Virus record (IMG/VR): IMGVR_UViG_3300020204_000228 | Coordinates: 1-31,448 of that record | Direction: 5' to 3' (one strand) | From: a virus | Length of the DNA stretch: 31,448 nt | Part shown: positions 1-28,231 of the stretch, one piece after another | Position numbering within the stretch: the stretch's first letter is position 1 | How the letters are laid out: each line of letters starts with the position of its first letter | The notes under the pieces: model-generated | Databases searched by the model: none | Seen by the model: the letters and a program-made list of their open reading frames with translations, nothing else | Told to the model about the DNA's origin: nothing | Position numbers and translations under genes: made by a program

Positions 1-1
1 G

Positions 2-181
2 ATGCCCCCCAACTTCTGCCAGAATGAGGTGAAGGGTCTCATGTTCTCTTTTCTCGACAGGTGGTGGGATCCGGTGGGGACTGTTACGGGGGGAATCTGG
101 CGTCGGGGTCGGATGGGGTCATTTTGGGGGGTCGCCGCCCGTATAGTTTGGGCATGGGTAGACATAAAAAGAAAATCATAG
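2..181 (+). CDS. Possible 3' end of an upstream gene (partial, unknown)
   Basis: Frame 2 is open from the window edge to a TAG at 179-181. It translates as a Trp- and Arg-rich peptide of about 60 residues (…FLDRWWDPVG… then …VAARIVWAWVDIK…), which looks more protein-like than the Gly-rich product of frame 1 over the same bases. It would end 28 bp inside the Cas12-like gene if that gene starts at ATG 154, an overlap of a kind common in this window. No family is recognised. The piece may be only a chance open frame in GC-rich sequence, and the real start, if any, lies outside the window. Confidence 0.3.
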   Translation: MPPNFCQNEVKGLMFSFLDRWWDPVGTVTGGIWRRGRMGSFWGVAARIVWAWVDIKRKS

Positions 182-2247
182 ATGACCGCAGGCTTGGACG
201 TCTGATTGCAGGGTTAGCTGGTGTGGAGTCACCCCGTGATGGTGGTGTGGTTGAGGTTTGGAACTCAGACCAGGGTGCCCCGCCGGGCGCTGGGGAGACG
301 ACAAAGGAACGCCGGGCAAAAAATAAGAATTCTTCAGAACCACTTCACAAATCGATGATTCTGCCGATCCATCCGGATGCAGCTGCGGTGAAATGTCTGC
401 AAAACAGGGAGCTCGCATGCGCGCATGTCTACAAAACTGCGGTTGACCAGTTGAACCACCACTGCAACCTTGCAAATGGGTCCCAGGAGCGGCAGAATGT
501 CCTGTACGCAGGGGCATCGGGTGTGTCGGGGGCCGCAAGAAAGGTTGAGGTTGACAGGTGGAAGGGGATGGTGAGGCGCAGGAGAGAGGTTTCTGGGTTG
601 ATACGCACCGCACGGCTGGCGGGGGATGTGGAGGGGGTGGAAAAACTTGAGAGGGAGCGGACGAAAATTGACGAGGGGTGCCGTCGGCTGGGGGATTCAC
701 TCTTCGGTGGGAAGGTGGGGGGTGGAGCGGGCGCGGACACGCCGCTCGCCGCCGCATTCGAAGAATTTCGCAAGAGGTGGGGCTCGTACAAGGGGAATAC
801 ACACTATTTCACCAGGGCGCTACTGCGTGGTAAACGTTGGTGTGAGGTCGAAGACCACGTGTGGGGCCTGCATGATGATGGGGCGGGTGGTGACATCCTC
901 GACGGGTGGGTCGGAGCTCACCTCTCCCCAACAAATGTGTGCGAAATTGCAAAGGAGGTGGGTAAAAATTTCTCAAACGGCATCCGGAACAGCGGTCACG
1001 GAAACCGTTTCCGCCTGCGTCGGGGAGGACGCAGACATCGGTGCGGCACTGGCGACAGGACAACCTCTCTGAACGGTGGGAGGCTTGTTTTGATGAGTGA
1101 TGGAACATTCTACCTCCTTGTGCGGAGGAGTGGTGCCAGCAGAAGGATCATCGGAGACCGGCCTGAGAATGTTCACAGGATCAGGTGTTCCCTGAGGGAT
1201 CCACGGCAGGACAAAGGAAGGCAGCGCGACGATCTGGTACACATCATCAGGGACAGGGAGGTTGTGAGCAGGGTGCGTGCGGTCATGCCAGTTTTTCATC
1301 GCGGGCTGTGGTATGTGCACATCCTCTACTCATGCAGAAAGTTGCGTGACAGGGAAAATCTTCTCCCTGGATGCACCGTTGGTGTTGATCTGGGTACTGA
1401 AACCGTCTCGGTAAACATTGTTGATGATTCGACTGGTCTCACTGTGTTCGCCGGAAAATTATCAACCGTTGAAGAGTGCAGAGGACGCGAGAGGCGGCTG
1501 CTGCGCCAACAAAAGAGGTTCAGCGAGGGGTGTCGTCTCCGAGCAACAGAGTTGGGGATCATCCGCGAAGGTGGTGCGTGGGGGGAGGGCAAACGCCTGC
1601 AGCGTAAGTTTTGGACCGCGAGAGTGAGAGATGTGCATCGCAGGATGAAGAGGACAGAGGGTCAGATCGTAGAGGCCAGAAAAAACCTCCGCAACAGGGT
1701 TGCAACCTTCATCGGCTGCATCGGCGGCCGTCTGTTTTCGGAGGGCGGAGATGTTGCGGGCTGGGCAAAAGACCACGGACGCGGCGTGGAGCGCGGTTCT
1801 CCTGGGGCATTCAGAAACGCAATGTTCGTAGCTTCAAACAGATGCGGAAGGAGATCGATTGACCTGAGAAAAAACCCCATGAAGGTTTCAGAGGGGCATC
1901 TGTATCTGGTTGATCAGAAAAAATACAGAGCAACTGGCACAGATATTTTTGAGAAGAACCCACGACGTGCGTATACTAAGTTGGGGGCAGACGTGAGGGA
2001 AATTGTCAGGAACGGTGTGACCGTTGACAGAGACCTCTATGCTGCTCTCAATCTTTCTCATCCGAATATCGACGGTACAAAAATCAACAGGGATGCTGCA
2101 ATGAGAGATTTCAAACACCTCTACTGCGGCACCGACCCAGCTTGTGATGATGGGGGTCGGCAGGGACCTGTCTTTGGAGGGGTCATCCCATTCGGGAAGT
2201 TCGTGCAGATCATAACCGATTTGCACAAAAAACTTTCTGCGGGGTGA
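154..2247 (+). CDS. cas12: Compact type V (Cas12-like) CRISPR effector nuclease
   Basis: Predicted RNA-guided nuclease of 697 aa, lying 158 bp upstream of a CRISPR array on the same strand. A TnpB-like N-terminal segment begins near residue 67 (MILPIHPDAAAVKCLQN). The split RuvC domain is visible: RuvC-I VGVDLGTETV (Asp about 412), a basic bridge-like helix (RVRDVHRRMKR), RuvC-II RLFSEGGDV (Glu about 530) and RuvC-III VDRDLYAALNLS (Asp 625/627). Between motifs II and III only one Cys is present, so the usual four-Cys zinc ribbon is missing. ATG 154 (MGRHKKK) is preferred over the longer frame from GTG 61, whose extra residues are Gly-rich. A start at ATG 352 is also possible. Size and lone-effector context fit the phage-borne families Cas12j (CasPhi) and Cas12l (CasLambda), but the subtype cannot be fixed by eye. 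No Cas1, Cas2 or Cas4 accompanies it. Confidence 0.85.
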   Translation: MGRHKKKIIDDRRLGRLIAGLAGVESPRDGGVVEVWNSDQGAPPGAGETTKERRAKNKNSSEPLHKSMILPIHPDAAAVKCLQNRELACAHVYKTAVDQLNHHCNLANGSQERQNVLYAGASGVSGAARKVEVDRWKGMVRRRREVSGLIRTARLAGDVEGVEKLERERTKIDEGCRRLGDSLFGGKVGGGAGADTPLAAAFEEFRKRWGSYKGNTHYFTRALLRGKRWCEVEDHVWGLHDDGAGGDILDGWVGAHLSPTNVCEIAKEVGKNFSNGIRNSGHGNRFRLRRGGRRHRCGTGDRTTSLNGGRLVLMSDGTFYLLVRRSGASRRIIGDRPENVHRIRCSLRDPRQDKGRQRDDLVHIIRDREVVSRVRAVMPVFHRGLWYVHILYSCRKLRDRENLLPGCTVGVDLGTETVSVNIVDDSTGLTVFAGKLSTVEECRGRERRLLRQQKRFSEGCRLRATELGIIREGGAWGEGKRLQRKFWTARVRDVHRRMKRTEGQIVEARKNLRNRVATFIGCIGGRLFSEGGDVAGWAKDHGRGVERGSPGAFRNAMFVASNRCGRRSIDLRKNPMKVSEGHLYLVDQKKYRATGTDIFEKNPRRAYTKLGADVREIVRNGVTVDRDLYAALNLSHPNIDGTKINRDAAMRDFKHLYCGTDPACDDGGRQGPVFGGVIPFGKFVQIITDLHKKLSAG

Positions 2248-2405
2248 TATCCAAAAATATCTCCTGAAATACCCAGCTCTGGAAACTGCACGCCTCTTTT
2301 TTGGATCCACATGTGGCATCAGCCTGTTTGTGGACAACATCAAATGGTTGCAGGGTAAAGCACTCCACACACGTGGGGTGCCCGCTAGGGCATTACCCAT
2401 CTTAT
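2248..2405 (+). promoter_or_regulatory. CRISPR leader with an imperfect hairpin
   Basis: This 158-bp stretch separates the effector stop from the first repeat and has no open frame of note. At 2376-2398 GGGTGCCC and GGGC-ATT-ACCC can form an 8-bp stem with a 3-nt bulge and a GCTA loop, ending 7 bp before the first repeat. A second, competing pairing is possible between GGGTAA (2353-2358) and TTACCC (2393-2398). It is the leader by position, because the decayed repeats are at the opposite end of the array. No convincing -35/-10 pair was found, so the array may be co-transcribed with the effector. Confidence 0.5.
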
Positions 2406-3291
2406 GGTGTCAACACCCGTCAAAAAATGGGTGATCACAACCTCTCCCACCCCCAGGGCTCAAAGAGCTGTGGTGTCAACACCCGTCAAAAAATGGGTGA
2501 TCACAACAGATGAGCTGGGAAAGATCTAGAAGTCTAGGGTGTCAACACCCGTCAAAAAATGGGTGATCACAACCGATGAGTGTGCGGCAGCCATCACGAT
2601 CAAGGTGTCAACACCCGTCAAAAAATGGGTGATCACAACTGAGTTGCCGAGTCTCAGGGTTGAGGTGTCAACACCCGTCAAAAAATGGGTGATCACAACC
2701 TCGTGTACCTGCATGATGCCTAGCTGGTGGTGTCAACACCCGTCAAAAAATGGGTGATCACAACCTACTTGGAGGTGCTCCAAATCTGTATTGGGTGTCA
2801 ACACCCGTCAAAAAATGGGTTATCACAACCATGAACACCTGTCGGAACGCCAGCTAAAGGTGTCAACACCCGTCAAAAAATGGGTTATCACAACAGTATC
2901 TCTCTGAGCGCCAGCTCAAGGTGTCAACACTCGTCAAAAAAAATGGGTGATCACAACATTTGGGTAAAGGTGTCAACACCCGTCAAAAAATGGGTGATCA
3001 CAACTAAAAGCAAGAGCGGTTCCATCACGATCTAGGTGTCAACACCCGTCAAAAAATGGGTTATCACAACTAATAGCGGTTAGGTCGAGCGCGTGGGATG
3101 GTGTCAACACCCGTCAAAAAATGGGTTATCACAACTTCGCAAGAACCTCCTGGTTGAAGCTGCTTGGTGTCAACACACGTCAAAAAATGGGTTATCACAA
3201 CGGTCGCCAGTCCTCGGTGTCAACACCCGTCAAAAAATGGATCATCACAACATCACAACTCAACACAAGTAAAAAAATGGATCATCACAAC
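2406..3291 (+). CRISPR. CRISPR array, 14 repeats of 36 bp plus one decayed repeat
   Basis: Repeats start at 2406, 2472, 2538, 2604, 2664, 2729, 2794, 2859, 2920, 2969, 3035, 3100, 3166 and 3216. The unit begins GGTGTCAACACCCGTC, continues with an A-run and ATGGG, and ends TGATCACAAC. CACCC and GGGTG inside it can form a stem-loop. Repeats 7, 8 and 11-13 read TTATCAC where the others read TGATCAC. Repeat 9 has two extra A and a C-to-T change; repeat 13 has one C-to-A change; repeat 14 has GATCATCAC. A 15th copy at about 3259-3291 has lost its 5' end. Spacers are mostly 24-30 bp, with two very short ones of 11 bp (2958-2968) and 14 bp (3202-3215). Decay at the right end places the leader at the left, next to the effector gene. 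Confidence 0.97.
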
Positions 3292-3789
3292 ATCACAAAT
3301 AATCACAACAACATAGCACCAAATCATGTGGTGTTGGACAGGGACGAACTGGCCGAGGCATATAGCCTTGCCCAACGCAGGATGGATGGCGTTCAGAAGA
3401 TGGGGTTGCTCGACAAACACGGAGCAGCTGGTCACAAGAACTCAGAATACCACATCCTCGGGGCAAAAGGCGAGATTGCCTTCCGCAAGTTCATCGGATC
3501 TTCGGATCCTCTGACTGTCAACACATTCAGGTCTACCCCAGATGTGAGAAATTATGAGGTCAGGACCAGGAGCAGGGATGATTTTGACTTGATCCTGCGG
3601 AACGACGATTCGGACCACAAAATTTATGTTCTGGTGGTTGGTGATGGGTGCAGATTCAGGGTGGTTGGCTGGCTGCGTGGATCAGAGAAGTATCCACATG
3701 GTCAGAAGACATACGGCGGCAGGCCGCCAGCATGGTTCGTACCACAGAGTGCCCTCCACGACATGTCTGAACTGCCCACTGACGGTTAA
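3277..3789 (+). CDS. Unknown protein, possible PD-(D/E)XK-like fold, starting in the decayed array end
   Basis: About 170 aa. The frame is open leftward through the array, but protein-like sequence begins near VVLDRDELAEAYSLAQRRM. Candidate starts are ATG 3277, inside the decayed last repeat, or GTG 3328/3331; none has a clear ribosome site. The core shows GAKGEIAFRKFIG, then PDVRNYEVRTR, then IYVLVVGDGCRFRVVGWLRG and PPAWFVPQSAL. This layout (GxxGE, D, then E-x-R and a Gly-Trp strand) is one I associate with phage and metagenomic hypothetical proteins, and it recalls restriction-like nucleases with the usual Lys replaced by Arg. The nuclease reading is an inference. Its position right after the array suggests co-transcription with it, but it does not look like a known Cas protein. 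It ends 4 bp from the convergent neighbour. Confidence 0.7.
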   Translation: MDHHNITNNHNNIAPNHVVLDRDELAEAYSLAQRRMDGVQKMGLLDKHGAAGHKNSEYHILGAKGEIAFRKFIGSSDPLTVNTFRSTPDVRNYEVRTRSRDDFDLILRNDDSDHKIYVLVVGDGCRFRVVGWLRGSEKYPHGQKTYGGRPPAWFVPQSALHDMSELPTDG

Positions 3790-3793
3790 TTTG

Positions 3794-4393
3794 TCAAGAG
3801 TTATGATCACCCATATCTCTGCGTTTAGACTCCCACTGTGCCTGTGACTGTATTTCTGTGTTTGGATCGTTGACGAGGTATTTCACATGGAGATCTGATA
3901 TATCTTTCCCGAAATCGCGTATCCCTATGAATCTCACATACGGGTTTGGGTGAAAGGCGGTGAGTGCAAGCAGTCTTTTGAATTTGGGCTTGTCTCGCTG
4001 TTCTATGCGTAGTTTATCTACTGCGGCCTCTCCCTGTAGCTGGAGATTTTCTGACACTCTTTTTGTTCCGGTTGCCCTTTCTTTCTGCATCTCTCTGAAA
4101 ATATGTACAGCAAGGGCGTCCATACCCGCCTCCTCAAGCCGCAACCGTTCAGGATAAAGCTTGGTTACGCCCTGTGCTTCTTGGAGGTTTGTGTCTCCGT
4201 ACTCCTTGATGGCTTCTCTTTCTCCTTCTGGATACAGGTCGAGCAGTGTATGCTCTCTGGTTTCGTCTGCCGGTTTTTTTATGATTTGGAATTTTGACAG
4301 GTTGAAATTCATGTGCGGTTGGGTCTTTTGGCGTGTGCGGTTGGACGCAGAACTTCCTTTACCCGCTCCTACTATTGACCATACTTTTTTCAT
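3794..4393 (-). CDS. Unknown protein, 199 aa
   Basis: It begins MKKVWSIVGAGKG and starts in an ATGA overlap with the stop of the 2OG oxygenase gene, so translation is probably coupled and this is the last gene of the leftward set. The middle is charged and helical (for example PEGEREAIKEYG and RLRLEEAGMDALAVHIFREM). The C-terminal part (FHPNPYVRFIGIRDF… then KYLVNDPNTE) resembles one or two HEAT/LRV-like helical repeats. No family is recognised. The last codons (MGDHN) are encoded by an inverted 15-bp near-copy of the CRISPR repeat end. It is convergent with the gene ending at 3789. Confidence 0.75.
   Translation of the reverse strand: MKKVWSIVGAGKGSSASNRTRQKTQPHMNFNLSKFQIIKKPADETREHTLLDLYPEGEREAIKEYGDTNLQEAQGVTKLYPERLRLEEAGMDALAVHIFREMQKERATGTKRVSENLQLQGEAAVDKLRIEQRDKPKFKRLLALTAFHPNPYVRFIGIRDFGKDISDLHVKYLVNDPNTEIQSQAQWESKRRDMGDHNS
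3800..3814 (-). repeat. Inverted partial CRISPR repeat (15 bp, 14 matches)
   Basis: Read on the minus strand this is ATGGGTGATCATAAC; the array repeat ends ATGGGTGATCACAAC. It lies about 510 bp beyond the last array repeat, in opposite orientation, inside the last codons of the 199-aa gene. By rough count a 14/15 match to this segment is unlikely by chance in a window this size. It could be an anti-repeat, a relic of array rearrangement or a binding site. No longer complementarity to the repeat was seen. Confidence 0.6.
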
Positions 4394-4944
4394 TGTATTT
4401 CCTTATTTTTGTTGAAACCCCAAAAACTAGCAAGAGTATATCTAGTGTTTCCTTTTAGTTCGGTAACACCATGTCTGTGATTACAATCACCCAAATGCAT
4501 TGCAACTGTTCCTGCCTTTGGTGTTACTTCAAAATTGTGTTCTGTGTAATATGTTTTACCACCCTGATAATCGTCATTTAAATAAATTACACAACCAAAA
4601 TATCTTTCACCAAATAACTTATGCTGTTCTTCATTATCAGACATATCATCACAATGTGGAATCTGTTTCATTCCGTCAAACCAACGGACAACATCTAAAG
4701 TATCTGGATATACTTTTTCTTCCAAATTATATTCATTGTGAAGTGTTATTTGTAATCTTGAAATAATTTCTTTACACAACTCTTTAATGTTTTTTGGCAA
4801 ATCTCTATAATTTATAGTTCTTTTGTCCCAAAAATTATTTGGAATTGGTCTCCACATATCTGTGGTTTTTGCATAATTTAATAGTGTTTCACATTCACTC
4901 TTACTCAAGAATCCATTAATTGTTTTCGCTTGAAATTGTTCCAT
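4390..4944 (-). CDS. 2OG-Fe(II) oxygenase, prolyl-4-hydroxylase type
   Basis: 184 aa, about the size of a single oxygenase domain. Enzymes of this fold use 2-oxoglutarate, O2 and Fe(II) to hydroxylate proteins, nucleic acids or small molecules. Visible metal ligands are the HxD motif in KQIPHCDDM and a distal His in CNHRHGVTEL, followed by the 2-oxoglutarate-binding Arg in GNTRYTLASFW. The core strand FGCVIYLNDDYQGGKTYY is typical. The N terminus (FLSKSECETLLNYAK) matches the start of the family. It overlaps the DUF6065-like gene by 29 bp upstream and the 199-aa gene by ATGA downstream. The sequence is clearly AT-richer than the flanking genes, which suggests separate acquisition. The substrate is unknown; in phages such enzymes often sit near structural or modification genes. 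Confidence 0.9.
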   Translation of the reverse strand: MEQFQAKTINGFLSKSECETLLNYAKTTDMWRPIPNNFWDKRTINYRDLPKNIKELCKEIISRLQITLHNEYNLEEKVYPDTLDVVRWFDGMKQIPHCDDMSDNEEQHKLFGERYFGCVIYLNDDYQGGKTYYTEHNFEVTPKAGTVAMHLGDCNHRHGVTELKGNTRYTLASFWGFNKNKEIQ

Positions 4945-5764
4945 TATTTATTTCCTTTCTATGGAAGGGACACCCATTTATTGATCTTTGGTGATTTTCA
5001 AATTTTTTCTTTGAATCCATACTCTCAATGCCCTTAGTGTATAAGGAATGATTGGAGTTTGCATCATACTTAATTTCTTCTCTCTTTTGTGCCCAACTTC
5101 TATGTTCTTTTGCAAAATCAGAGTTTGGATCTTCTCTTTGATCTATTGCATCAAATGATTCAAGATAATATCTTGGAATTGGAAAAATCGTAGCCAGTGG
5201 TTCTCCCCTGAAAAACTGGACAGTTTCGTTGGGTTTTGTCAATTTCCAATTCAATGTAAATGTATAAGGAAGCCAATCAGTTTCAACTATTGCCTCAAGT
5301 GCTTGGGCGCCATGTTTAAAATGATTTGTTGGTCCTTTTACAAATAGGTTATGTCCTTCGGATGTTCTAAAAATAAATCCAAGATATGAAAATGTTACTA
5401 TACCATTTCCAAAGTGAGAACTTATAGAATTTTTTTTGATGAAGGTATTATCTTCTTCACTTTCTATACAGAAATTAAATTTAATGGCATTTTGATATCC
5501 AATATCTCCATTCCATGTTGCGTCAAAAGATATTGGATTTAAAATCTCCCACCCAAAACCATTTGCAACACTCAAAGGCAAGCAACGATATGCATGACCA
5601 TTGTTGACATCCATCCATCCTCTTTTTTTTTCTGGTAAAGATACAATATAAGGACATTTTCCTTCGGGATTTTCTTCTGACATCAATCTAACTATAGTTT
5701 TATCTTTATTCATATCAATTATGTAGGATATGCCAGCAAACTTAGGACTTAGGATTCTCCCCAT
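4916..5764 (-). CDS. DUF6065-like protein
   Basis: 282 aa. Recognised from its conserved pattern: GWEILNPISFDATWNG, SHFGNGIVTFSYLGFIFRTS, LFVKGPTNHFKHGAQ, VETDWLPYTFTLNWKLTKP and FFRGEPLATIFPIPR. This fits the DUF6065 family, which is found in phages and bacteria often beside 2OG-Fe(II) oxygenases; that is family knowledge from memory. Its function is unknown. The gene overlaps the oxygenase gene by 29 bp and the upstream thermonuclease remnant by 16 bp, so the two enzymes are probably made together and may act in one modification step. It shares the AT-rich base use of the oxygenase. No signal peptide or membrane segment is visible. Confidence 0.75.
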   Translation of the reverse strand: MGRILSPKFAGISYIIDMNKDKTIVRLMSEENPEGKCPYIVSLPEKKRGWMDVNNGHAYRCLPLSVANGFGWEILNPISFDATWNGDIGYQNAIKFNFCIESEEDNTFIKKNSISSHFGNGIVTFSYLGFIFRTSEGHNLFVKGPTNHFKHGAQALEAIVETDWLPYTFTLNWKLTKPNETVQFFRGEPLATIFPIPRYYLESFDAIDQREDPNSDFAKEHRSWAQKREEIKYDANSNHSLYTKGIESMDSKKKFENHQRSINGCPFHRKEINNGTISSENN

Positions 5765-6159
5765 CTTTCTTTTTTATTTTTCGCTTCTATACGCACTTGA
5801 TCTAACAAAGTAAAGTCTTTTGCTTTGGTTTCTCCCATGTATCCCCAAGCATAGCCTTCATTTATCATCAAAGAATTCAAAGACGCACTAGACGAGTCTG
5901 AGTATATCTCTACAAGCATTCGACCGTACTTGTCGTCTTTGGTAGTGCGGGCCCACCCAATCTTTGCTTCGATCAGGTCGCCCAGCTTGTTGCCTGCTTC
6001 CTTCAGCCAGCCTGTTTCTTTTCCTATTCGTCGCCATCCAGATTGTGATAATTTGTGTTGCATGTAGATTGCCGATGCGGAAAAAATTGATGTCGTTGGC
6101 GACATTCCAACGGAGGAAGATCTCTTCTCTTCCCCTGATGAGCTGACGATCCCACCCAC
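5749..6159 (-). CDS. Chimeric protein: W..IG...GWLK motif fused to a thermonuclease C-terminal half
   Basis: 136 aa from a GTG start with GAGGG upstream. The C-terminal half (TTKDDKYGRML, INEGYAWGYMG, TKAKD) is the second half of a staphylococcal-nuclease (SNase) domain and closely resembles the intact copy at 28315-28713. The first half of that domain, which carries the VDGDT metal-binding Asp and the RLxGID-PE active-site segment, is missing. In its place is a Ser-rich stretch and LSQSGWRRIGKETGWLKEAG, a motif also present in the adjacent 41-aa protein. It should have no nuclease activity. It may be a gene remnant or a repurposed fusion. It overlaps the next gene by 16 bp, so it is still part of the leftward operon. 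Confidence 0.7.
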   Translation of the reverse strand: MGGIVSSSGEEKRSSSVGMSPTTSIFSASAIYMQHKLSQSGWRRIGKETGWLKEAGNKLGDLIEAKIGWARTTKDDKYGRMLVEIYSDSSSASLNSLMINEGYAWGYMGETKAKDFTLLDQVRIEAKNKKERWGES

Positions 6160-9018: not shown

Positions 9019-9665
<647 letters not shown>

Positions 9666-9672
9666 TATCCCC

Positions 9673-10332
9673 ATGCAAGTTCGTGGAACTGCGAGGCAAG
9701 ACGGCTTGAGATCATCAGGGACAGATGTCCAGGTTCAATTCGGCTGGTACAGACAGGCCAAGCTTGGCACGCATGACGGGACAACACTGGGGCTCTGTGG
9801 TCATAAGATTGCCATGGAAGATGGTTCGAATGCCACCCCTGAAGTCTTGATGAAGGCGTTGGAAGCTTGGAATACCGATGTTCGCTTGCAGGCAGCAGGC
9901 CACCGCAATGCAACCGCTGAAGTCTTGATGAAGGCGTTGGAAGATGGGTATGACGGTGTTCGAGTGGCTGCAGCATCCAACCGCAATGCAACCACTGAAG
10001 TGCTGATAAAGGCATCGAAAGATGATAGCACGACGGTTCGATGGACTGCAGCATGCCACCGCAATGCCACCGCTGGGATTAAGGCGGAATGGGTGATAAA
10101 TGCTTTAAAAAGTCGTTCAAGGAGTGAAATATTCGCTTTCTTTCAAGATTTGGAATTTAATCGTGGTGAATTTATAATGAGTGATTTGATCAGACTCATC
10201 ATCACGGACAAGCGTGTTGATCTGGGTGGTCTGGATATGTTTCAGGAAGCTGTACAAGATTATAAGTTTGACAACCCCATAGTGAGCAGGATGATCAAGC
10301 GCGAAAAGATGTGGAGGAAGACAGATGCCTGA
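9673..10332 (+). CDS. Solenoid repeat protein 1 (HEAT/LRV-like), tandem paralog
   Basis: 219 aa, the shortest of three tandem paralogs. Shared parts: the N-terminal segment GWYRQAKLGTHDG and GHKIAMED, then 26-residue repeats of the form [13 protein letters not shown]…VRxxAAxxR (about four here), then a C-terminal domain ([45 protein letters not shown]). The repeats suit a helical solenoid used for protein binding. The 5' end differs from its paralogs: the ATG at 9725 that lines up with their start is out of frame, so the gene must use ATG 9673 or another start and gains about 20 odd residues (MQVRGTARQDG…). Its stop overlaps the next start by 8 bp (ATGCCTGA). Function unknown; context suggests tail or host-surface work. 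Confidence 0.75.
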   Translation: MQVRGTARQDGLRSSGTDVQVQFGWYRQAKLGTHDGTTLGLCGHKIAMEDGSNATPEVLMKALEAWNTDVRLQAAGHRNATAEVLMKALEDGYDGVRVAAASNRNATTEVLIKASKDDSTTVRWTAACHRNATAGIKAEWVINALKSRSRSEIFAFFQDLEFNRGEFIMSDLIRLIITDKRVDLGGLDMFQEAVQDYKFDNPIVSRMIKREKMWRKTDA

Positions 10333-11278
10333 TCTTGTTGGCTGGTACAGACAGGCCAAGCTTGGCACACATGACGGAGAAACACTTGGGCTCTGTGGTC
10401 ATAAGATTGCTATGGAAGATGATCCAGCGCGATTACTTGCTGCAGCCGCATATTTGCCTCCCAATGCCTCCGAACATGTGCTCATAGAGGCATTGGGACA
10501 CGAAGATGAATATGTTCGCCGAAGGGCAGCATCCCACCGCAATGCCACTCCTGAAGTCTTGATGGAGGCGTTGGGAGATAGTGATTTGTCGGTTCGCTTC
10601 CATGCAGCACGCAACTCCAATGCCACCACTGAAGTGCTGATGAAGGCATTGGAAGATGAGAGCGCAACGATTCGACAGACTACAGCAGAAATTCTGACTG
10701 CCACCCCTGAAGTCTTGATGAAGGCGTTGGAAGATAGGGATCCCCATGTTCGCTGGCAGGCAGCATTCAACCGCAGAGCAACCACTGAAGTCCTGATGAT
10801 GGCGTTGGAAGATATTGATTCGGGTATTCGAACGGCTGCAGCATCCAATCGCAATGCAACCGCTGAAGTCTTGATGAAGGCGTTGGAAGATATGAGTTAC
10901 TGTGTTCAGGCGGCTGCAGCATCCAACCGCAATGCAACCACTGAAGTGCTGATGAAGGCGCTAAAAAATGAGCACATAAATATTCAAATGTCTGCAGTAT
11001 ACCACCCCAATACCACCGTTGGGATGAAGGCGGAATGGGTGATAAATGTTTTAAAAAGTCGTTCAGAGGGTGAATTGTACCTTTTCTTTCGACAGTTGGA
11101 ATTTCATCGTGGTGAATTTATAATGAGTGATTTGATCAGACTCATCATCACGGACAAGCGTGTTGGTTTGGGTGAACTGGATCTGTTTCAGAAAGCTGTA
11201 AAAGAAAGTCATTTTGATAACCCCATAGTGAGCAGGATGATAGGGATCGAAAAGAATAAGAGGAAGACAGATGCCTGA
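10325..11278 (+). CDS. Solenoid repeat protein 2 (HEAT/LRV-like), tandem paralog
   Basis: 317 aa, starting [18 protein letters not shown] in an 8-bp overlap (ATGCCTGA) with the previous stop. It has about eight 26-residue repeats, for example [20 protein letters not shown] and [20 protein letters not shown], the first ones being more divergent (PARLLAAAAYLPPNASEHVL). The C-terminal domain matches the two paralogs ([38 protein letters not shown]). The conserved Asn-Ala-Thr turn, Leu pattern and Val-Arg pair resemble leucine-rich-variant or HEAT repeats. No catalytic motif is seen, so a binding or scaffold role is likely. Differences in repeat number among the three genes show active expansion and loss. 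Confidence 0.85.
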   Translation: MPDLVGWYRQAKLGTHDGETLGLCGHKIAMEDDPARLLAAAAYLPPNASEHVLIEALGHEDEYVRRRAASHRNATPEVLMEALGDSDLSVRFHAARNSNATTEVLMKALEDESATIRQTTAEILTATPEVLMKALEDRDPHVRWQAAFNRRATTEVLMMALEDIDSGIRTAAASNRNATAEVLMKALEDMSYCVQAAAASNRNATTEVLMKALKNEHINIQMSAVYHPNTTVGMKAEWVINVLKSRSEGELYLFFRQLEFHRGEFIMSDLIRLIITDKRVGLGELDLFQKAVKESHFDNPIVSRMIGIEKNKRKTDA

Positions 11279-12191
11279 TCTTGTTGGCTGGTACAGACAG
11301 GCCAAGTCTAGCACACATGGCCTCACTGGAGAGGAGAAGACCCCCCATTGGGAGGGACTGTCTCGTCAGGGATATAGGTTTCATCACGCATCGGGTACAC
11401 ATGACGGGACAACACTGGGGCTCGGTGGTCATAAGATTGCCATGGAAGATGATCCGAATGCCACCCCTGAAGTCTTGATGAAGGCGTTGGAAGATACGGA
11501 TTGGAGGGTTCGTGCGAACGCAGCAATCCACCCCAATGCAACCGCTGAAGTCTTGATGAAGGCGTTGGAAGATACGGATTGGAGGGTTCGTGCGAACGCA
11601 GCAATCCACCCCAATGCAACCGCTGAAGTCTTGATGAAGGCATTGGAAGATTTTACCGATCTTCCCTGGCAGGCAGCAAGCCACCCCAATGCAACCGCTG
11701 AAGTCTTGATGAAGGCGTTGGGGAATGAGAGACCCCTTGTTCGAGAGGAGGCAGCAGGCCACCGCAATGCAACCGCTGAAGTCTTGATGAAGGCGTTGGA
11801 AGATGGGTATGACGGTGTTCGAGTGGCTGCAGCATCCAATCGCAATGCAACCACTGAAGTGCTGATGAAGGCATCGAAAGATGATAGCACGACGGTTCGA
11901 TGGACTGCAGTACGCCACCCCAATGCCACCGTTGGGATGAAGGCGGAATGGGTGATAAATGTTTTAAAAAGTCGTTCAGAGGGTGAATTGTCCCTTTTCT
12001 TTCAAGATTTGGGATTTCATCGTGGTGAATTTATAATGAGTGATTTGATCAGACTCATCATCACGGACAAGCGTGTTGATCTGGGTGGTCTGGATATGTT
12101 TCAGAAAGCTTTAGAAGAAAGACATTTTGATAACCCCATAGTGAGCAGGATGATCAAGCGCGAAAAGATGTGGAGGAAGACAGATGCCTGA
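11271..12191 (+). CDS. Solenoid repeat protein 3 (HEAT/LRV-like), tandem paralog
   Basis: 306 aa, starting [12 protein letters not shown] in the same 8-bp overlap as copy 2. It has an insert of about 30 residues after the N-terminal motif ([20 protein letters not shown]…) that the others lack, then about six or seven repeats, two of which are exact DNA copies. Repeats [20 protein letters not shown] through [12 protein letters not shown] are almost identical in DNA to those of copy 1 (9897-10055 against 11757-11913), which points to recent gene conversion or duplication. The C-terminal domain is shared ([19 protein letters not shown]). Its stop overlaps the tailspike start by the same ATGCCTGA, tying the solenoid genes to the tailspike operon. 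Confidence 0.85.
11467..11640 (+). repeat. 78-bp perfect tandem duplication in solenoid gene 3
   Basis: Two successive 78-bp units (26 codons) starting at 11467 and 11545 are identical, and the identity runs on into the start of a third unit at 11623. The encoded unit is [13 protein letters not shown] followed by [13 protein letters not shown]. The absence of silent differences implies a very recent duplication. Confidence 0.93.
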
Positions 12192-25623: not shown

Positions 25624-26490
25624 TCAATCCATGAATGAAGCAGCCATTTTGGCCTCCTCGTCATGAATTCTGCGGTCGTATCTGACTGTTGTCTGCGGGT
25701 TTGAGTGGCCAGCCATCTTCATGGCAACAGAGATGTCTACCCCGCCAAGCCACTCTCCGATGGCGGTACGCCTCAGGTCGTGTGGCGTAAACGACACCCC
25801 GGCCTTGGCCGCCACCCTGCGGATTATCTTGTTGATGGCTCGGCTAGTTATAGGTCTGTGGTACCTCACAAAGGCTCCACACTCGTGTGGGAGGATATAG
25901 AAGCCATCCCTGTCTCTTCCCCTAACGGACAGGTATGCCAGGAGGTCGGCACTTGCCTTCTCTCCAAGAGGAACCTGGCGCCGCCTGCCACCCTTGCCTA
26001 TAACATTCACATGGGACATGTCAGGCGAAAAGTCCGTGGTTCTGAGGACTGTCACCTCAACCCTCCGTAGACCCGCCAGGAGCAGCCTCACCACGGCCCT
26101 ATCGCGAAGACCTTGGTGGCCATCCCCGCACGCCTCGATGATCTTGTACCTGTCCTCGCGATCCACATGGCGCCCGCACGGGGGGGATGCCGGGCGGCTC
26201 CAGCGGAGGCTGGTGACCCTCTGGAGGTCTTCGTGGCTCTTGAGACCAAGACGCCAGCATTCCCTGATGACCTCCCTGACAAAACTCATCTCTTTGGCAA
26301 CCGTTGCCTGTGACTTACTATGCCCTAGGTGTGATGCTAGCCTGCTGAGGTCATCAACCCCCACCATGTGCCATGCTGCCGCCCCCTCCCCAAAAAGGAA
26401 GACCTCTGCCGACCTGATTGATCCTGAAGCAGAAACCTTAGACAGTGGTGCAAGTCTACTGAGCCAAGATTCGACTGGGTTCTTGTCCAT
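25624..26490 (-). CDS. int: Tyrosine recombinase (phage integrase family)
   Basis: 288 aa, the normal size for a Xer/integrase-type enzyme. The N-terminal SAM-like core-binding domain spans about 1-100 (SRLASHLGHSKSQATVAKEM). The catalytic domain shows the active-site set: first Arg in LLLAGLRRVEVTVL, Lys in VIGKGGRRRQVPLG, HxxR in FTPHDLRRTAIG, His in MAGHSNPQTT and the nucleophile Tyr in VRYDRRIHD. It cuts and rejoins DNA through a phosphotyrosine link. It may integrate the phage, resolve multimers or invert a segment; no attachment site was identified beside it. Residues SWLSRLAP near the start recall, but do not fit, the shared aromatic motif. Confidence 0.93.
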   Translation of the reverse strand: MDKNPVESWLSRLAPLSKVSASGSIRSAEVFLFGEGAAAWHMVGVDDLSRLASHLGHSKSQATVAKEMSFVREVIRECWRLGLKSHEDLQRVTSLRWSRPASPPCGRHVDREDRYKIIEACGDGHQGLRDRAVVRLLLAGLRRVEVTVLRTTDFSPDMSHVNVIGKGGRRRQVPLGEKASADLLAYLSVRGRDRDGFYILPHECGAFVRYHRPITSRAINKIIRRVAAKAGVSFTPHDLRRTAIGEWLGGVDISVAMKMAGHSNPQTTVRYDRRIHDEEAKMAASFMD

Positions 26491-27853: not shown

Positions 27854-28231
27854 ATGTGGCTGATCAAGACATCGATAGACAGGTCTAGTATTCACGGATT
27901 TGGTTTGTTTGCTCAAGAAGATGTGCCTGCTGGCGCACTGATTTGGCGCAGGAACCCGTCCATCGACATCAAGGTTGAGTGGAGCGATCAGGTGATAAAC
28001 TCCATGCCGTCGCATGTCGCAAAGTCAGTTAGGTTAAGAAGTTATGTTGACCATTCGACAGGCGTCAGAACCTTCGGGATTGACGGCGATGCATTTGTGA
28101 ATCATCAAGACATCCCAAATGTTGTGTTTGATTCAAATGGAGATGGCTATGCCTCAAGGCGCATAATCATCGGAGAAGAGATCACTAACAACTATCAGGA
28201 CATAGATCTCTCTTTTTCCCCTCTGCATTGA
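27854..28231 (+). CDS. SET-domain protein 2
   Basis: 125 aa. A second, more compact SET protein. Visible motifs are SSIHGFGLFAQEDVPAGALI, then DAFVNHQDIPNVVFD (NH-x3-PN) and RRIIIGEEITNNYQD (GEExTxxY, with the active-site Tyr). It would methylate Lys in a protein. It differs from SET protein 1 by lacking both the Cys cluster and the N-terminal aromatic motif, so the two probably entered separately. The ATG has no ribosome site but a TATAAT just upstream (see the divergent promoter). It ends 83 bp before the convergent thermonuclease. Confidence 0.75.
   Translation: MWLIKTSIDRSSIHGFGLFAQEDVPAGALIWRRNPSIDIKVEWSDQVINSMPSHVAKSVRLRSYVDHSTGVRTFGIDGDAFVNHQDIPNVVFDSNGDGYASRRIIIGEEITNNYQDIDLSFSPLH

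What the first reader, a model, noticed from the sequence alone, without database searches (positions are those of the whole stretch)
154..3291. Self-contained compact type V CRISPR unit on a phage, lacking adaptation genes
A roughly 700-aa RuvC effector sits directly upstream of a 14-repeat array on the same strand, with no Cas1, Cas2 or Cas4 in the window. Phage-borne Cas12j and Cas12l have this layout. The repeat and protein do not let me assign a known subtype by eye, so it may be a divergent member or a new one.
Basis: partly seen in the sequence, partly recalled or inferred. Interest (0 to 1): 0.85.

Follow-up and report, generated by a model that had tools for sequence, protein, structure and literature searches.

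The report
Orphan phage-borne compact CRISPR nuclease unit
A virus of bacteria, known only from assembled environmental DNA, carries what looks like a small RNA-guided DNA-cutting system, one nuclease gene next to its own list of target snippets; the nuclease resembles no named CRISPR subtype closely and probably acts against competing viral or host DNA.

Summary
A 697-codon ORF (154-2247, +) lies 158 bases upstream of 14 repeats of 36 nt (2406-3251), same strand. The protein is a very divergent TnpB/Cas12-superfamily member: weak hits (PHROG transposase 1e-6, NCBIfam TnpB 2.5e-5, PADLOC Cas12u3 0.015), no Pfam or PDB sequence hit. Three RuvC acids can be aligned (D412, E530, D627); the TnpB zinc ribbon is missing. 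All nine variable sites in the gene among related contigs are third codon positions, eight synonymous, so the protein is under selection. Cas1, Cas2 and Cas4 gave no match in the phage fragments searched. Only contigs of the same virus carry it; my searches found no other relative and no convincing target. Two spacer pairs share in-register 3' halves; one pair differs only at synonymous codon positions, as if copied from homologous protein genes. The gene's 3' end forms a 32-bp RNA hairpin. I read it as a functional phage type V interference unit and candidate new subtype; activity, PAM and targets are unshown.

The parts
154..2247 (+). effector gene, 697 aa, TnpB/Cas12 superfamily (alternative GTG start at 61)
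   Evidence: family hits; all 9 variable sites at third codon positions, 8 synonymous
1387..1389 (+). D412, RuvC-I acid in GVDLG
   Evidence: aligned with TnpB-like proteins; position
1741..1743 (+). E530, proposed RuvC-II acid in LFSEGGDV
   Evidence: one search aligns it with the TnpB glutamate; searches did not
2032..2034 (+). D627, RuvC-III acid in VDRDLYAALN
   Evidence: not so aligned
2172..2258 (+). 32-bp RNA hairpin across the stop codon of the effector gene
   Evidence: fold -38.7 kcal/mol; 100-nt window at 2181 z -4.65, lowest of the plus-strand scan
2248..2405 (+). structured stretch between gene and array, presumed leader
   Evidence: z -2.4 alone, z -4.0 with the first two repeats
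2406..3251 (+). CRISPR array: 14 repeats (13 of 36 nt, one of 38), 13 spacers
   Evidence: repeat hairpin -11.6 kcal/mol, z -2.4
2574..2603 (+). spacer 3, shares its last 13 nt (12 of 13) with spacer 10
2830..2858 (+). spacer 7, last 20 nt match spacer 8 at 16 of 20, differences synonymous in one frame
2895..2919 (+). spacer 8
3005..3034 (+). spacer 10
3260..3291 (+). degenerate 15th repeat, array tail
   Evidence: family D2
3328..3789 (+). next gene after the array, phage family of unknown function (start uncertain)
   Evidence: PHROG 18407, E 6e-27; no Pfam match
3799..3814 (-). inverted copy of the repeat's 3' part (94% of 16 nt), also the last codons of the minus-strand ORF 3794-4393
   Evidence: inverted repeats I3 and I4

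Best explanation
A phage-borne, single-effector type V CRISPR interference unit. Shown: an intact TnpB/Cas12-like gene, kept by selection, directly upstream of an array of hairpin-forming repeats that hardly varies. Inferred: gene and array are read from the same strand; repeats fold into short hairpins that the effector (or a host RNase) uses to cut out crRNAs with the repeat handle 5' of the guide; the effector works without a tracrRNA and cuts matching DNA with one RuvC site. Targets are most likely protein genes of competing phages or of the host, because spacer pairs look copied from homologous coding sequences. With no adaptation genes in sight, new spacers would come by recombination or by host adaptation proteins.
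For: Layout and repeats. Superfamily hits in three libraries over residues 341-543. Triad alignable. Third-position-only variation in the gene. Repeat hairpin. In-register 3' similarity of spacers: the best tail was reached in 1 of 20,000 shuffles and the second best in 0 of 20,000; four random changes are synonymous in some frame in 126 of 20,000 trials, as they are for spacers 7 and 8. Cyanophage CL131 has the same plan (PMC6293099, passages).
Against: No relative, so no tree. The TnpB signal is weak and below curated cut-offs: blastp best E 0.024 in a set of nine TnpB-like proteins, and PHROG 506 by another tool gave 0 of 3 records of this virus. E530 is aligned as catalytic in one of three alignments. 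No structure. No convincing target: whole array against phages no match, plasmids E 10 only, 5 of 13 spacers singly at chance level, a 20-mer of spacer 3 only in the same virus, 11 of 13 spacers tested against own genome pieces without match. No promoter excess (2 sites, shuffles mean 3.0). Short spacers and altered late repeats could mean decay.
Confidence: 0.77

Rival explanations
1. A TnpB-type transposon nuclease that merely sits beside a CRISPR array of other origin; it uses its own 3'-end RNA (omega RNA) and the array is a passenger or a decoy for host CRISPR.
For: Best-scoring families are TnpB. The lowest z of the RNA scan covers the gene's 3' end, where TnpB guide RNAs lie (recalled).
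Against: 697 aa against 378-500 aa for seven phage TnpB-like CDSs, although an eighth, of a Cylindrospermopsis phage, has 668 aa. No zinc ribbon. No tnpA noticed by eye (not searched). Array next to the gene in 10 of 10 contigs.
Confidence: 0.13
2. A silencing or decaying unit: the effector binds crRNAs but does not cut, as in V-M (PMC12669027, passages), or the system is being lost.
For: The RuvC-III motif has Y where the aligned TnpB-like proteins mostly have N. Repeats 9, 13 and 14 and the tail copy are altered, and four of 13 spacers are short.
Against: All three acids alignable. Variation only at third codon positions. The hairpin arms ACCCGT/ATGGGT are exact in 11 of 14 repeats and differ by one base in the other three (by eye).
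Confidence: 0.08
3. A divergent member of an existing phage subtype (Cas12j or Cas-lambda) whose sequence signal has faded. Not exclusive with the best explanation.
For: Size (697 aa against 737 and 747 aa, PMC11641405 passages), phage carrier, hairpin repeats, no adaptation genes found.
Against: No match in PDB chains at E up to 10; PADLOC gives only Cas12u3 and Cas12f at 0.015-0.066. I held no reference sequence of either family, and do not know from my calls whether PADLOC models them, so this is not excluded.
Confidence: 0.2

Closest known systems
Type V-U2 (Cas12u2, C2c8) system of cyanophage vB_AphaS-CL131
   Same: Phage-borne TnpB-like effector with the array just past its 3' end, 36-nt repeats, uneven spacer lengths, repeat hairpin with a 6-nt loop, no other cas genes seen around it (PMC6293099 passages).
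   Different: 466 aa with zinc ribbon against 697 aa without; different repeat sequence; no significant similarity (blastp E 3.2 in a two-sequence set); Cas12u2 profile E 3e-158 against no match.
Cas12j (Cas-phi, V-J) and Cas-lambda of phages
   Same: Compact single effectors of phages that process their own crRNAs (PMC11641405 passages); the last point is untested here.
   Different: No detectable similarity in the libraries searched; not compared directly.
TnpB of IS607 and IS200/IS605 elements
   Same: RuvC-I region and triad.
   Different: Longer, no zinc ribbon, CRISPR array beside it; far below curated cut-offs.
Cas12u3 / Cas12f (V-U3, V-F)
   Same: Best PADLOC matches, in the RuvC-I region.
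   Different: E 0.015-0.066 only. A phage TnpB-like protein (L078) scores 2.7e-84 on Cas12u4 in the same run, so these profiles do not separate CRISPR effectors from TnpB.

Membership tests
Type V CRISPR-Cas (any) | single RuvC effector of TnpB/Cas12 descent | tested here: met
   scores weak and below curated cut-offs, and one search found no PHROG 506 match
Type V CRISPR-Cas (any) | CRISPR array next to the effector | tested here: met
Type V CRISPR-Cas (any) | crRNA-guided DNA binding or cleavage | not testable with these tools
   needs experiment
V-U2 / C2c8 | match to the Cas12u2 or V_cas_c2c8 profile | tested here: not met
   none listed at E up to 10; the CL131 control matches both
V-F / Cas12f, Cas12u3 | significant profile match | tested here: not met
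   E 0.015-0.066
V-J (Cas12j) and Cas-lambda | sequence clade membership | tested here: inconclusive
   no PDB match, no such PADLOC match; no reference sequence compared
V-J (Cas12j) and Cas-lambda | crRNA without tracrRNA | tested here: inconclusive
   best duplex in the 2.2-kb flanks equals the mean of 20 shuffles; stronger ones lie at 851 and L008:9501, untested; inverted repeat copy at 3799-3814
TnpB of IS200/605 or IS607 | C-terminal zinc ribbon CxxC-CxxC | tested here: not met
   no cysteine between residues 564 and 658
TnpB of IS200/605 or IS607 | curated NCBIfam cut-off | tested here: not met
   23.4 bits against 350; 20 against 100

The most novel reading that the evidence does not exclude
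A separate capture of a TnpB-type nuclease by a CRISPR array, seen so far in one virus: a new type V subtype whose zinc ribbon is replaced by a segment without cysteines, and which still carries a structured RNA at the gene's 3' end where TnpB keeps its guide RNA, that is, a form between TnpB with its own RNA and crRNA-only Cas12.
Probability: 0.3. Interest if true: 0.75.

Novelty: new variant of a known kind. Interest (0 to 1): 0.6.

Why it matters
About 50 separate unions of TnpB-type nucleases with CRISPR arrays have been inferred and more are expected (PMC12669027, passages). Phage type V units without adaptation genes are no rarity in themselves: a landfill survey found a type V homolog in 114 of 450 CRISPR-bearing viral elements (PMC12607003, passages). 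What would matter here is a compact effector with no close relative, a possible small editing nuclease, and spacer pairs that seem to follow homologous target genes without any Cas1-Cas2 in sight, which makes the origin of phage spacers testable.

Tried and rejected
Tried without result: AlphaFold2 on the single protein (mean pLDDT 37.5) and on its C-terminal part with two TnpB-like rows (34.1); no fold search was run on such models. Relatives by protein, by exact and relaxed repeat, by RuvC-I and RuvC-III codon patterns: only the same virus, TnpB-like proteins (L078, L079, L092) and unrelated proteins. A profile of the C-terminal part with three TnpB-like rows finds TnpB, Cas12f, Cas12p and other chains in the PDB, but the TnpB rows drive it, so I do not use it. 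Rfam gave only a tRNA and one sub-threshold match, E 0.77, in the array.

Rejected: chimeric spacers made by recombination inside the array. I first read the shared 3' halves this way; for spacers 7 and 8 the differences sit at every third base and are synonymous, which points to coding targets. For spacers 3 and 10 there is one difference in 13 and no frame can be chosen.

Rejected as evidence: spacer 12 against a Synechococcus phage sliding clamp (22-nt match at 95.5%, E 0.2; 22 of 30 over the whole spacer) and spacer 3 against a T7-like RNA polymerase gene (17 nt, E 2; 23 of 30). With five spacers searched, such hits are expected by chance. TracrRNA: the best duplex with the repeat in the 2.2-kb flanks (-27.6) equals the mean of 20 shuffles; duplexes of -32.8 at 851 and -34.8 at L008:9501, just upstream of the window, were not tested against shuffles.
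Full report
What is there. The window is a 31,448-base virus record. An ORF of 697 codons starts at ATG 154 and stops at 2247; an in-frame GTG at 61 is possible. From 2406 to 3251 lie 14 copies of a repeat, GGTGTCAACACCCGTCAAAAAATGGGT(G/T)ATCACAAC, 36 nt (38 in one copy), with 13 spacers of 11 to 30 nt; a 15th degenerate copy ends at 3291. The first six repeats are identical and copies 13, 14 and the tail are altered, which fits a leader on the gene side; copy 9 is altered too. The repeat RNA folds into a 7-bp hairpin with a 6-nt loop and three outer pairs (-11.6 kcal/mol, z -2.4); the T variant is weaker (-8.5, z -1.7).

The same virus elsewhere. Ten other contigs in the virus collection carry the locus, with protein identity shown as 100%; the DNA alignments I saw, for five of them, are at 99.8-99.9% over about 12 kb. 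That they are the same virus is my inference. The array is identical in 9 of 10 and differs by one base in the tenth. Seven contigs cover the whole gene and three part of it. Nine sites in the gene vary; all nine are third codon positions in the frame of ATG 154 and eight are synonymous. Without selection about a quarter of changes would be synonymous (recalled), so the protein is kept by selection. This is the best evidence that the gene is real and in use. Between 1393 and 3088 no site varies, against 11 in the first 1,392 bases; I cannot tell whether this is a sweep or shared history.

What the protein is. It matches PHROG 506 transposase (E 1e-6), NCBIfam IS607 TnpB (2.5e-5) and guided TnpB (3.3e-4), and PADLOC Cas12u3 (0.015), all between residues 341 and 543. 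Both NCBIfam scores are far below the curated cut-offs. Pfam gives none at E up to 1 and PDB sequences none at E up to 10. Against this, a search of three records of this virus with PHROG 506 by another tool gave 0 of 3, and blastp in a set of nine phage TnpB-like proteins reached only E 0.024. In the ten-sequence alignment the RuvC acids line up: D412 in GVDLG, E530 in LFSEGGDV, D627 in VDRDLYAALN. In two smaller alignments E530 was placed elsewhere, and in one of them D627 too, so E530 is likely, not proven. The zinc ribbon of TnpB is absent; there is no cysteine between residues 564 and 658.

Controls. The effector of cyanophage CL131, described as type V-U2 (PMC6293099, passages read), scores 3e-158 with PADLOC Cas12u2 and passes NCBIfam's C2c8 cut-off, so the libraries do see a known phage system and this protein lies far from it. 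The same run shows a limit: a phage TnpB-like protein, L078, scores 2.7e-84 on Cas12u4, so these profiles do not tell CRISPR effectors from TnpB. Phage and plasmid records have no match at E up to 1. The scans need short exact peptides or DNA words, so distant relatives may have been missed.

Adaptation genes. Cas1 gives no match in 6 of 6 records of this virus, Cas4 and Cas2 none in 3 of 3, while 9 or 10 of 14 control genomes ring. The records are fragments.

RNA around the gene. A plus-strand scan of 100-nt windows (220 in the first 4.4 kb, 449 beyond) gave the lowest z, -4.65, at 2181; the next, -4.58, lies in the array, and the lowest beyond 4.4 kb was -3.8. A 32-bp hairpin spans 2172-2258 across the stop codon. 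By stem length alone it is not unique in the window, and the first 4.4 kb were sampled more densely. It could be an RNase III processing site, an mRNA 3' end, or a remnant of a TnpB-type guide RNA; without relatives I cannot choose. No tracrRNA anti-repeat stands out in the 2.2-kb flanks; stronger duplexes at 851 and at L008:9501 were not tested against shuffles. An inverted copy of the repeat's 3' part at 3799-3814 is also the end of a minus-strand ORF. Promoter-like sites are no more frequent than in shuffles, 2 against a mean of 3.0 in 1-4500.

Spacers. Spacers 7 and 8 match at 16 of their last 20 bases; the four differences lie at third bases of one frame and both read L-S-E-R-Q-L. Spacers 3 and 10 match at 12 of their last 13. 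Such 3' tails were reached in 1 (best) and 0 (second best) of 20,000 shuffles. Four random changes are synonymous in some frame in 126 of 20,000 trials. So at least one pair looks copied from homologous protein genes at the same site. No spacer has a convincing match: none of the 11 spacers of 24 nt or more in the virus's own pieces, none for the array in phages, E 10 only in plasmids, chance level for five of 13 spacers searched singly in phages; a 20-mer of spacer 3 occurs only in this virus. The other spacers were not searched singly in any collection.

Reading. The evidence fits a phage type V interference unit: an intact selected effector, crRNA-like hairpin repeats, guides that look drawn from real genes, no adaptation module found. 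Known phage type V systems share this plan, and the current classification expects many further TnpB-CRISPR unions (PMC12669027, passages). The review PMC11656645 (passages) describes phage CRISPR units that act against host defences or rival viruses; by analogy I expect the same here. Cleavage, crRNA processing, PAM and targets are inferences. I file it as a new variant of a known kind and a candidate subtype. It fails the V-U2 and V-F profile tests; Cas12j and Cas-lambda could not be tested directly.

Noticed in passing
window 1-1392 against 1393-3088: Eleven variable sites among ten contigs of the virus in the first 1,392 bases, none in the next 1,696, which hold the 3' part of the gene and most of the array.
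   Followed up: partly
window 3794-4393 (-): The last codons of this ORF (..MGDHNS) are an inverted copy of the CRISPR repeat's 3' part; perhaps a relic of array rearrangement.
   Followed up: no
window 9577-12191 (+): Three neighbouring paralogous proteins built of repeats such as [17 protein letters not shown] with a shared C-terminus, HEAT-like by eye.
   Followed up: no
window 5749-6159 (-); L008 6879-7352 (-), 7417-7695 (-); L040 16029-16805 (+): Several otherwise different ORFs of this virus share a stretch like LSKSDWLRIGREFG..A, mostly near the N-terminus; possibly a targeting tag (by eye).
   Followed up: no
window 27854-28231 (+) and 25624-26490 (-): A SET-domain protein (Pfam E 2e-9) and a phage-type integrase (Pfam E 4e-23).
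   Followed up: partly
L105 2669-4675 (-), MH636380.1: A Cylindrospermopsis phage protein of 668 aa annotated as transposase matches PADLOC Cas12u2 (E 4e-49) but stays below NCBIfam's C2c8 cut-off; the repeat search of the 9 kb read showed no CRISPR-like array.
   Followed up: partly
L041 4084-9186 (-) and 9183-11033 (-); L042 3137-5879 (+): Two long cysteine-rich proteins with intein-like (Hint) stretches, and tandem RCC1-like repeat proteins, both by eye.
   Followed up: no
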